Source: Pseudobutyrivibrio sp. (GTDB lineage: Bacteria > Bacillota > Clostridia > Lachnospirales > Lachnospiraceae). From it: a stretch of 64,000 bases of DNA. The stretch covers positions 1 through 64,000 of the forward strand of contig JAILGH010000057.1 of the NCBI GenBank assembly GCA_024697025.1. Direction: 5' to 3'. Within the stretch, counting starts at the first letter, position 1. The number at the start of each line of letters is the position of its first letter. Shown one piece after another: positions 15,231-43,190 of the stretch. The notes beneath the pieces are model-generated. The model was not told the origin of the DNA. It saw nothing but the letters and a program-made list of their open reading frames with translations, and did not search any database. Position numbers and translations under genes: made by a program.

Positions 15231-15523
15231 TAAGCTTTACATATCCAACATTATGTATTCCCCTTTTGGTTATATACACCTTATTTGTCTTCATATTCCA
15301 TTCATCAAGTGTAATTAAGAAAACGTATTTTGTAGATATGGGCACCAGTCAAGATTCACATCCATGTTCAACTTTCCTTGACCTCGCCGTCCATGGCTCG
15401 GTCTGCCCATATCTTTCAAAACTCATTTTCTATTACACTAGATTCATTCCAAAATCAGACAACTAAGGTGTATATAATCCAACAGGGGAATTACCTACAA
15501 TTTTTGAATGTAAAGCTTATAAA
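15227..15523. repeat. 297-bp imperfect palindrome (rod-like element)
   Basis: Four blocks on the left pair in order with four on the right: 15227-15242 with 15508-15523 (16 of 16), 15257-15283 with 15464-15491 (one mismatch, one bulge), 15284-15315 with 15432-15463 (several mismatches), and 15317-15344 with 15404-15431 (a few mismatches, ending in GATATGGGCA). The apical 59 bases contain further complementary bits (CCATG with CATGG). No open frame here looks coding. It fits a long structured RNA, or a small non-autonomous mobile element, lying between the transporter and regulator operons. Confidence 0.85.
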
Positions 15524-41284: not shown

Positions 41285-42136
41285 CTATTTGTTTTTACCA
41301 TTCCTATGTCGTAGGAATTCTGAGCCCTTATCCAAAAGAGCCTTGGTAGACTCCACTGGATGAGTAAACTTTGTAATGTGCCTAAACTGACCCTTTTGAG
41401 GAGAAGACGCATGGCTAATCCATTGCTTAACATATTCTGTAGAAAGCTGTTCTAGCAGCTTGCGTTTGTCCTCTAAGGATAGCTCTTGCTTTAGGGCTTC
41501 CTTTGTCTCGTTAATCTTTTCTATTGTTGCAGTCTTGGCATCTGCAAGGTTAGTAGATATAGCCTCAACTCTTTCTGCCATCTGGTTATTGAGCATATCG
41601 TTGATGCGCTCAAACTCCTTAGCAAAGCTAGTAAGAGCAGATACGGTAAGAGCCAAGTCCATTCCAAATATAAACATAAAAATCAATGCAATCAATTCTA
41701 TTGCAATCATTGGAAGCATCCCCACTACAGAGACAACTGGTGGCACCAAATATTTAGTTACCAAGATTCCAGCCAAACCAAAGCAGCAGGTAAAGATGAG
41801 GCATACTCGACCATTGATATTAAGTGGCATTTTAGAATAGTCCCACCAACGAGCATGGAACTTTCTCTCCAAGAAATAACTTGTTGCGTATTCTAAAACA
41901 AATGAGCCGATGGCACAGCTTAGGAAAATTGTAAGATTACTTGATTGATTCAAAGCAGGACAGTCCACAAAAAGTATTTGGGCTAGTGTTGCACCAACTC
42001 CATATATTGGAATACATGGTCCGTACAAAAAGCCTCTATTTCTCCATACCTTCTCGTGTATGGTACAAAAGCATGTCTCGTAAATCCAACCAAAGAAACT
42101 ATAAATTATAAACAACACAAAATATGTACTTATCAT
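41285..42136 (-). CDS. CmpB-family membrane protein (putative ABC transporter permease)
   Basis: A 283-residue membrane protein with about five hydrophobic segments in the first 160 residues. The opening YFVLFIIYSFFGWIYE and the block RNRGFLYGPCIPIYGVGA are typical of the PF06541 (CmpB-like) family. The C-terminal third is a charged, soluble coiled coil (AERVEAISTNLADAKTATIE). Transport is only a family label. The start at 42136 is chosen for AGGGGG just upstream; ATG at 42154 is also possible. It is divergent from the metalloprotease gene across the 403-bp palindrome. Confidence 0.7.
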   Translation of the reverse strand: MISTYFVLFIIYSFFGWIYETCFCTIHEKVWRNRGFLYGPCIPIYGVGATLAQILFVDCPALNQSSNLTIFLSCAIGSFVLEYATSYFLERKFHARWWDYSKMPLNINGRVCLIFTCCFGLAGILVTKYLVPPVVSVVGMLPMIAIELIALIFMFIFGMDLALTVSALTSFAKEFERINDMLNNQMAERVEAISTNLADAKTATIEKINETKEALKQELSLEDKRKLLEQLSTEYVKQWISHASSPQKGQFRHITKFTHPVESTKALLDKGSEFLRHRNGKNK

Positions 42137-42197
42137 AAATCCCCCTGAACTCATTTTTCTTCCATTTTATTCCACTTAAGGCCAAAAATAAAGTTGG

Positions 42198-42600
42198 ATA
42201 CATGTAACTATTCACATCTTTTATTTATTCTTGAGACATCTTTTACTATATAGGTATAGGTTCAATCATAGAATAATGATTCTCTAATTGCTGCATGTAG
42301 CTTTCTTTATTGTGGGTGTTCTTTCAATTATTTGCACTTCTATCGCTACAGTATGCATTGCTCAAACACACTCTATTTAAAGTAAGATTCCCATATAACT
42401 TATAGGGGAATTAATGTAACCTTCAAGTGTCTGAGCCATTCATACAGTAGCTACAAAGTGCAAAATCAATGAAAGGACACCCACTTAAAGCTACGTTTGC
42501 AGCAATAAGAAAATCTATTATTCTATTCAAATTCACCTATACCTACATAGTAGAAGATGTCTCAGTTTGAATATTTAAGGTTGTGAATAGTTACATGTGT
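42198..42600. repeat. 403-bp imperfect palindrome (rod-like element)
   Basis: The sequence is nearly symmetric about base 42399. The outer arms 42198-42216 and 42582-42600 pair almost fully. The 29-base blocks 42233-42261 and 42535-42563 match at all but two or three positions. Many shorter blocks pair in order (ATTGCTGCA with TGCAGCAAT; GTGGGTGT with ACACCCAC; TTTGCACTT with AAGTGCAAA). The apex is GATTCCC...GGGGAATT at 42386-42412. No open frame looks coding. It fills the divergent gap between two genes. Candidates are a large structured RNA or a foldback mobile element. Confidence 0.85.
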
Positions 42601-42674: not shown

Positions 42675-43190
42675 ATGAGCATTAATTCATTGACGGGAAT
42701 TGCAAGAAATGAAGTGCAGACTGCGTACCAGAGCCCTGGGCAGAAGCGAGTGGCTGACGCCATCGAAAGACAAGGGGGCAATCCTGCTTTGGCAAAGGGG
42801 TTCTCTTCTGAGAAGGCGGCGAAGCGTGCCGGGGTATTAAAGTGCGAGACCTGCGCCACTAGAAAGTATCAGGATGGCAGCGACGAGCAGGTTTCCTTTA
42901 AATCTCCACAGCATATTAGTCCAAATGCAGCTGGGGCGAGAGTAAGAGGCCATGAGCAGGAGCATGTAAACAATGCTTATGATAAGGCAGCAGAAAAGGG
43001 AGGCAAGGTGCTTAATGCTTCAGTGGCGATACACACAGCGGTTTGTCCGGAGTGTGGCAGGACTTATGTATCTGGAGGCACAACCACAACGCAGATTAAG
43101 TATCCAAATGAGGATAACCCTTATCAAAAGGATAGGAAGGCGGCAGATGGCGCAATGCTTTTTGGGATGAATTTTGACGCAAAGTTTTAA
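42675..43190 (+). CDS. SprA-related putative metalloprotease
   Basis: A 171-residue protein of the SprA-related family (PF12118-like). The block SPNAAGARVRGHEQEHVNNA contains HEQEH, an HExxH zinc-protease motif. Cysteine pairs CETC (near residue 55) and CPEC (near 120) could form a second metal site. There is no signal peptide. The start at 42675 follows GGTGGTGG; an in-frame ATG at 42642 is possible. Catalytic activity has not been established for the family as far as I know. Confidence 0.75.
   Translation: MSINSLTGIARNEVQTAYQSPGQKRVADAIERQGGNPALAKGFSSEKAAKRAGVLKCETCATRKYQDGSDEQVSFKSPQHISPNAAGARVRGHEQEHVNNAYDKAAEKGGKVLNASVAIHTAVCPECGRTYVSGGTTTTQIKYPNEDNPYQKDRKAADGAMLFGMNFDAKF

What the first reader, a model, noticed from the sequence alone, without database searches (positions are those of the whole stretch)
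42198..42600. 403-bp near-symmetric palindrome filling a divergent promoter region
Read directly, the two halves pair in order along their whole length around base 42399, with a 29-base block (42233-42261 with 42535-42563) nearly perfect and a hairpin apex at 42386-42412. Mismatches are scattered, some being G-U on one strand and A-C on the other. Nothing coding explains it. It could be a very long rod-like RNA, a foldback (MITE-like) element, or a processed double-stranded RNA source next to a metalloprotease gene.
Basis: partly seen in the sequence, partly recalled or inferred. Interest (0 to 1): 0.8.

Follow-up and report, generated by a model that had tools for sequence, protein, structure and literature searches.

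The report
Core-deleted copy of a mobile palindrome
The 400-base palindrome is a broken copy of a small gene-less element scattered through Pseudobutyrivibrio genomes, whose intact copies carry a known "RNA" motif at the hairpin tip but whose matching arms look as if they are kept matching by DNA copying rather than by selection on an RNA.

Summary
In detail: window 42198-42600 is one continuous imperfect palindrome (RNA-fold z -25 and -22). It is not unique. The genome (a Pseudobutyrivibrio) has relatives of it at 13 other places, some truncated. Intact copies hold a further ~211 nt between the arms. That missing piece contains the Rfam motif TwoAYGGAY (RF01731). The window copy is therefore core-deleted. 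Of 14 relatives in which both flanking genes are adjacent, 13 lack the palindrome and one has a full-length element in the same gap.

The arms do not behave like an RNA helix. In 131 copies isolated mismatches are G·U 233 against A·C 219, versus 13 to 0 in a small tRNA control. Four G003 copies, 92-96% identical inside, carry outer stems only 45-60% alike, each 92-100% complementary to its partner. One orthologous insertion shows stems rewritten in place. I read this as a non-autonomous mobile palindrome whose complementarity is restored by hairpin-templated DNA copying. Intact copies may also make a CsrA-binding RNA; that link is confounded with motility. The mover is unknown.

The parts
42200..42598 (+). 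core-deleted copy of the TwoAYGGAY-type palindromic element (orientation as in intact siblings, whose RF01731 core reads on the same strand)
42200..42216 (+). left terminal inverted repeat, ACATGTAACTATTCACA (form in several siblings GTTACTATTCACAGTC)
42217..42392 (+). left arm, 78-89% identical to left arms of other copies in the genome
42392..42393 (.). deletion junction: the intact copy on C93 has 211 nt here, including the TwoAYGGAY core; two-base CC overlap at the junction (read by eye)
42393..42581 (+). right arm, 87-93% identical to right arms of other copies in the genome
42582..42598 (+). right terminal inverted repeat, TGTGAATAGTTACATGT
15294..15453 (-). an intact TwoAYGGAY core in the same window, with shorter arms (70 and 67 nt beyond the hit)
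41285..42154 (-). flanking gene, ABC_trans_CmpB family (PF06541); conserved neighbour in relatives
42675..43190 (+). flanking gene with HExxH motif, no Pfam match over cut-off; start inferred from relatives

Best explanation
The palindrome is a derivative of a gene-less, dispersed inverted-repeat element of Pseudobutyrivibrio. Intact copies consist of outer stems that differ from copy to copy, conserved inner arms with internal loops that look conserved by eye, and an apical TwoAYGGAY motif. This copy sits between two divergent genes and lost its apical ~211 nt by a deletion inside the stem (shown by comparison; the slippage mechanism is inferred). The arms stay complementary mainly by a DNA process: during replication the arms fold back, one arm serves as template for the other, and mismatches are overwritten in blocks (inferred from strand-symmetric mismatches, clustered double changes and copy-specific matching outer stems). 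The conserved loops suggest that some parts are also selected, probably for recognition by an unknown mobilising factor and/or as RNA in intact copies. In this copy no TwoAYGGAY-type RNA function is expected because both AYGGAY loops are gone; its most likely effect is passive spacing of two promoters (inferred).
For: Relatives at 13 other places in the own genome (33 matches, which counts the query itself, separate arms and reverse-strand matches; places read); 15 RF01731 hits there, 14 over the cut-off; hits in 27 of 29 genus genomes, own included, up to 49 in one. Missing core identified as RF01731 (51.1-62.7 bits in 4 of 4 loci tested). Flanking genes adjacent without the palindrome in 13 of 14 relatives. 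Arms beyond the RF01731 hit exceed the null maximum in 68 of 71 loci. Isolated arm mismatches G-U 233, A-C 219 over 131 copies (binomial p 0.54); core hairpins G-U 6, A-C 4 beside 1321 Watson-Crick; 12 tRNAs: 13 G-U, 0 A-C, 248 WC. Orthologous insertion G009/G005: 23 double compensatory changes against WC->G-U 8 (plus one two-sided), A-C 6, other 20; double changes adjacent 7 times against a random mean of 2.0, equal to the maximum of 2000 draws. Outer stems that differ between copies but match within each copy. The core-less window arms are as complementary (0.83) as five intact siblings (0.82-0.87).
Against: No target-site duplication was recognised and no mobilising enzyme was found; the Y1 (IS200/IS605-type) transposase has no hit in this genome. 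One relative (G022) has a full-length element in the same gap, so this insertion may be older than the species, or the gap may be a preferred site. Template switching was not observed directly, and copying alone should erase internal loops. A palindrome functional as RNA from both strands would also give equal G-U and A-C. The tRNA control is small and was counted differently (all pairs of ARAGORN structures). Copies are related, so mismatch counts are not independent. The second ortholog comparison, G009/G023, is weaker: 2 double changes, WC->G-U 4 (plus one two-sided), A-C 2, other 1, with 122 pairs gapped. The outer part of the G009/G005 alignment is unreliable because the sequences are rewritten. 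The outer-stem contrast is sharpest in G003; among three own-genome copies the outer strands are still 66-72% alike, and complementarity over all 14 copies measured is 81-100% (with the best start offset chosen).
Confidence: 0.72

Rival explanations
1. A functional long rod-shaped or double-stranded RNA gene: the arms are kept complementary by selection on a transcript of the + strand, which may be cut by RNase III.
For: Very strong fold on both strands; 23 double compensatory changes in one orthologous pair; internal loops that look conserved in intact copies (by eye).
Against: No excess of G-U over A-C on the putative RNA strand (27 to 35, 61 to 57 and 35 to 45; 233 to 219), unlike tRNA; outer stems rewritten between copies and between orthologs; promoter-like sites no more than in shuffles and no terminator-like site around this copy; the Rfam-recognised core is deleted here.
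Confidence: 0.1
2. Intact copies are transcribed and their two A-N-GGA-N loops titrate the translational regulator CsrA, as proposed for TwoAYGGAY in PMC4333381 (passages seen); the window copy is a dead relic of such a sponge.
For: GGA-containing hairpin loops in intact cores; CsrA (PF02599) in 60 of the 63 RF01731-positive genomes against 148 of 334 others, p 1.5e-15 (overlap counted by hand from the lists).
Against: Flagellin (PF00669) is in 62 of 63 against 151 of 334, so motility or clade explains the link equally well; three RF01731-positive genomes (G219, G370, G409) have no CsrA hit; core hairpins are almost free of G-U; the window copy has no such loop.
Confidence: 0.25
3. An ordinary MITE: an internally deleted insertion sequence moved in trans by a DDE transposase acting on the terminal repeat GTTACTATTCACAGTC; arm matching is a by-product of recent origin.
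For: Terminal repeat shared by many copies (8 exact genome matches of a 15-base form), no ORF, dispersed copies, a short insert on C77 with the same ends.
Against: Copies in G003 and some in G014 have different outer ends (by eye); arms of ~230 nt are far longer than the 4-30 bp TIRs usual for prokaryotic MITEs (PMC10969869 passages); no clear target-site duplication; no transposon with these ends was found, though only the end motif was searched for, in the own genome.
Confidence: 0.25
4. A single-stranded-DNA element moved by a Y1 (IS200/IS605 or RAYT-like) transposase that reads the hairpin loops.
For: Conserved unpaired loops on otherwise freely varying hairpins.
Against: Y1 transposase has no hit in the own genome, which has 15 RF01731 hits, and is not enriched among positive genomes: 30 of 63 against 182 of 334, p 0.34.
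Confidence: 0.05

Closest known systems
TwoAYGGAY RNA motif (Rfam RF01731; Weinberg 2010, PMC2864571, table passage seen)
   Same: Sibling copies contain it at the apex; the window has one at 15294-15453.
   Different: The window palindrome lacks it. In this genus the motif mostly sits on arms of ~230 nt, at the tip of a dispersed element, which none of the passages I read mentions.
Prokaryotic MITEs, e.g. QMITE2 (PMC10969869, passages seen)
   Same: Non-coding, dispersed, inverted ends, strong predicted hairpin, size variants and truncations.
   Different: Arms of ~200-240 nt, nested conserved apex, outer stems that differ from copy to copy, no target duplication recognised, mobiliser unknown.
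Correia/NEMIS elements (PMC2649163, search listing only)
   Same: Dispersed inverted-repeat element with a conserved core next to genes.
   Different: Shorter in known cases (recalled); RNase III processing was not testable here.
Quasipalindrome correction by template switching (PMC7202029 passages; PMC8794818 abstract and start of introduction)
   Same: A DNA process that makes imperfect inverted repeats more perfect and produces clustered compensatory changes.
   Different: The cases in the parts I saw concern lacZ reporters and RNA genes such as rRNA; here it would act on a mobile element with arms over 200 nt.

Membership tests
TwoAYGGAY RNA (RF01731) | covariance-model match over the gathering score at 42198-42600 | tested here: not met
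   one search lists, for this family, only 15294-15453 in the window
TwoAYGGAY RNA (RF01731) | match in sibling copies with the same arms | tested here: met
Functional RNA helix | G-U pairs tolerated more than A-C on the RNA strand | tested here: not met
   control
MITE | several dispersed non-coding copies with inverted ends | tested here: met
MITE | insertion polymorphism (empty site in relatives) | tested here: met
   13 of 14 relatives lack it at the window locus, one is occupied by another element; G028 lacks the L101 insertion
MITE | target-site duplication | tested here: inconclusive
   ends compared by eye; none clear; ACATGT at both ends here is itself palindromic
MITE | autonomous element with the same ends | tested here: inconclusive
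   end-motif search in own genome only; the one larger candidate (L273) looks like a transposase-like gene inserted in an element copy
REP/REPIN with RAYT | Y1 transposase in the genome | tested here: not met
   none in G000 (genome 91% complete)
CsrA-binding sponge RNA | GGA in hairpin loops | tested here: not met
   deleted in the window copy; present in intact cores
CsrA-binding sponge RNA | binding and titration of CsrA | not testable with these tools
   co-occurrence only, confounded by motility
Correia/NEMIS-type RNase III substrate | transcription and RNase III cleavage | not testable with these tools
   no transcript data

The most novel reading that the evidence does not exclude
TwoAYGGAY as a whole is a family of mobile palindromic DNA elements, not (or not only) an RNA: its compensatory changes are written by hairpin template switching, its outer stems are hypervariable copy-specific duplexes, and the covariation that placed it among RNA families is largely made by DNA replication.
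Probability: 0.35. Interest if true: 0.78.

Novelty: new variant of a known kind. Interest (0 to 1): 0.57.

Why it matters
TwoAYGGAY was listed in 2010 as a probable RNA (PMC2864571) and treated in 2014 as of unknown function (PMC4333381). Placing it at the tip of dispersed elements with long arms, insertion polymorphism and strand-symmetric mismatches changes the question from 'what does the RNA do' to 'what moves this DNA, and does it also make RNA'. Counting G·U against A·C on the named strand is a cheap test for other covariation-based RNA families that live in palindromic repeats. Orthologous insertions whose stems are rewritten in place would make hairpin-templated copying directly testable in named strains such as P. 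xylanivorans DSM 14809.

Tried and rejected
Rfam on the palindrome itself: nothing. Y1 transposase as mobiliser: no hit in this genome and not enriched. Target-site duplications: looked for by eye at copy ends and at the empty gap, none clear. Spread of the inverted repeat into host flanks as a general rule: 3 of 39 loci exceed the 99% null beyond the arms, so not general; it does extend into terminator regions at L101 and, from the sequence, at L273. An autonomous version: the 2.2-kb inverted repeat in G003 looks like an element copy with an inserted transposase-like gene. CsrA link: strong, but as strong for flagellin, so not used as proof. First arm-scoring scheme too permissive (null maximum 185), replaced. 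The tRNA control gave no count and worked; one search then stopped with an error on copy C83, so outer stems of 14 of 15 listed copies were measured, and 13 were used.

Rows dropped: one search left out L065, L067 and L089 (short flank; 71 of 74 loci scored). One search left out L100-L104 (strand not listed), one cut-off hit in L208 and two duplicate cores (134 of 136), used 131 with enough flank for the arms, and counted hairpins only when the stem score was 8 or more (102 first and 43 second hairpins). In one search mismatches next to another mismatch were counted apart as 'tandem' (1167 in arms, 72 in hairpins), and isolated mismatches other than G·U and A·C number 597 in arms and 43 in hairpins. 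One search aligned 13 relatives; the 14th with adjacent genes (G022) was examined; the remaining 14 genus genomes did not show both genes close together on one contig. One search used stricter filters and lists at most 6 hits per genome, so some 'negative' genomes may hold weak copies.

Full report
What is there. Window 42198-42600 is a continuous imperfect palindrome that folds as one rod on either strand, far beyond dinucleotide shuffles. It lies between two divergent genes, an ABC_trans_CmpB-family gene and an HExxH-motif gene whose start is, by comparison with relatives, the ATG at 42675. No Rfam family matches it over cut-off.

It is a repeat. Searching the whole genome gave 33 matches, among them the query itself, separate arms and reverse-strand matches of the same copies. 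I fetched the 13 other places and read them: five copies have both arms and a core and the same arm family (C61a, C93, C30, C82, C83), others are truncated, cut by a contig end, or diverged (C12, C61b). In complete copies about 200 bases lie between the arms. They hold a motif that Rfam recognises as TwoAYGGAY (RF01731; 57.4, 62.7, 57.3 and 51.1 bits in 4 of 4 loci searched). The own genome has 15 such hits, 14 over the cut-off, one of them in this window at 15294-15453. Compared with the copy on C93 the window copy lacks 211 nt between GATTCCC (ends 42392) and ATATAAC (starts 42393), with a two-base CC overlap. So the palindrome is a core-deleted derivative; the 27-nt 'apex hairpin' is the healed stem.

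Organism. The tool places all three in the window's genus, so the window is Pseudobutyrivibrio (Lachnospiraceae by recalled taxonomy).

Distribution. RF01731 hits occur in 27 of 29 genus genomes, own included, up to 49 in one, and in 63 of 397 sampled genomes of the family. The long-arm element was found by DNA similarity in 23 of 61 genomes searched, own included, all of the same genus.

Insertion. In 13 of 14 genus relatives in which the two flanking genes are adjacent, the gap lacks the palindrome. The 14th, G022, has a full-length element there (arms 231 and 223 nt) with no BLASTN match to the window element. Either the gap is a preferred site, or an old insertion has been rewritten beyond recognition. 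A second locus (L101) has an element in G009, G005 and, shortened, in G023, but not in G028. I recognised no target-site duplication.

Arms. Measured outward from the RF01731 hit with a strict score, 68 of 71 loci exceed the maximum of 200 mispaired-flank controls (L111, L115 and L124 do not). Median arm length is 224 nt in the own genome (13 copies), 239 in the genus (42) and 48 in other genera of the family (76).

RNA or DNA? If the arms were selected as RNA on the strand of the motif, G·U mismatches should outnumber A·C. They do not: 29 against 38 in the own genome, 120 against 106 in the genus, 84 against 75 in the rest of the family, in total 233 against 219 (binomial p 0.54; copies are related, so this is only a guide). 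A smaller earlier count gave 27 to 35, 61 to 57 and 35 to 45. The alignment scored both kinds alike. Inside the core there are 6 G·U and 4 A·C beside 1321 Watson-Crick pairs, 43 other isolated mismatches and 72 tandem ones. That G·U share is about a tenth of that in 12 tRNAs (13 G·U, 0 A·C, 248 WC; p 5e-7). So the pairing is strand-symmetric, as expected for DNA. A palindrome functional as RNA from both strands would look the same; the control is small and was counted on ARAGORN structures rather than by the same alignment.

How the arms stay matched. In the orthologous insertion of G009 and G005, 23 pairs changed on both sides and stayed Watson-Crick, while WC pairs became G·U in 8 cases (plus one changed on both sides), A·C in 6 and other mismatches in 20 (12 by one change, 8 by two). 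G009 against G023 gives only 2 double changes against 4 (plus one two-sided) G·U, 2 A·C and 1 other, with 122 pairs gapped. Double changes in G009/G005 are neighbours more often than random (7 against a mean of 2.0; 2000 draws). The outermost stems differ almost throughout between G009 and G005 although flanks and core are conserved. Within one genome, four copies of G003 are 92-96% identical over 448-449 inner nt but only 45-60% over the outer stem strand, while each outer stem is 92-100% complementary to its partner. The contrast is weaker elsewhere: three own-genome copies (C61a, C93, C30) are 94-96% alike inside and 66-72% in the outer strand, three G014 copies 92-94% and 66-76%, and over all 14 copies measured complementarity is 81-100% (best start offset chosen). 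The core-less window arms are 83% Watson-Crick against 82-87% in five intact siblings. Template switching is known to make quasipalindromes more perfect in E. coli (PMC7202029, passages) and has been proposed to create and maintain RNA hairpins in evolution (PMC8794818, abstract and start of introduction). I think this is the main cause here. It does not explain the internal loops that look conserved, which suggest that some parts are also selected.

Function of intact copies. TwoAYGGAY was listed in 2010 as probably an RNA and probably not cis-regulatory (PMC2864571, table passage), although Rfam now types it as cis-regulatory, and was proposed to bind CsrA (PMC4333381, passages). In the 397-genome sample CsrA is in 60 of 63 positive genomes against 148 of 334 others (overlaps counted by hand from the lists), which fits. 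But flagellin is in 62 of 63 against 151 of 334, so motile clades explain it equally. The window copy has lost both loops.

Mobiliser. Unknown. Y1 transposase is unlikely as a general helper. Several copies share the end GTTACTATTCACAGTC, but other copies have other ends.

Known and new. In the library I searched, 7 papers hold the word TwoAYGGAY, 5 listed; the passages that I read in three of them do not link it to mobile elements. Searches for related terms listed no title or abstract start that describes this element; of those hits I read only the MITE review passages. Most subscription journals are not in that library, so this is not proof of absence.

Verdict. Observation confirmed; foldback option supported; rod-RNA option not supported for this copy. 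As an object it is a relic of a repeat family, but the family is more interesting than its Rfam entry suggests.

Noticed in passing
window 15294-15453 (-): A TwoAYGGAY core with shorter arms in the same window, between an operon that looks like a sugar ABC transporter and a response-regulator-like gene (my reading of the translations).
   Followed up: partly
L187, L188, L189, L190, L191, L196, L218: In other genera of the family TwoAYGGAY hits occur as close divergent pairs; in G036 pair members are more alike (0.78, 0.82) than members of different pairs (0.63-0.69), as after inverted duplication. Five of the seven loci were fetched because of this arrangement.
   Followed up: partly
L273 1650-4080: A G003 element copy seems interrupted in its apical GGA hairpin by a segment with a 447-aa transposase-like ORF (family not tested).
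   Followed up: partly
G022 (49 RF01731 hits) and G010 (one-contig genome, none): Copy number varies from 0 to 49 within the genus.
   Followed up: no
L101 1212-1234 and 1920-1942: The 3' ends and terminators of two convergent host genes around an element are inverted copies of each other in G009 (nearly so in G005), but not in the empty site of G028.
   Followed up: partly
L161 (G000:C77:1-900), about 275-466: A ~190-bp stretch bounded by the same terminal repeats but without the arms or core of the family.
   Followed up: no
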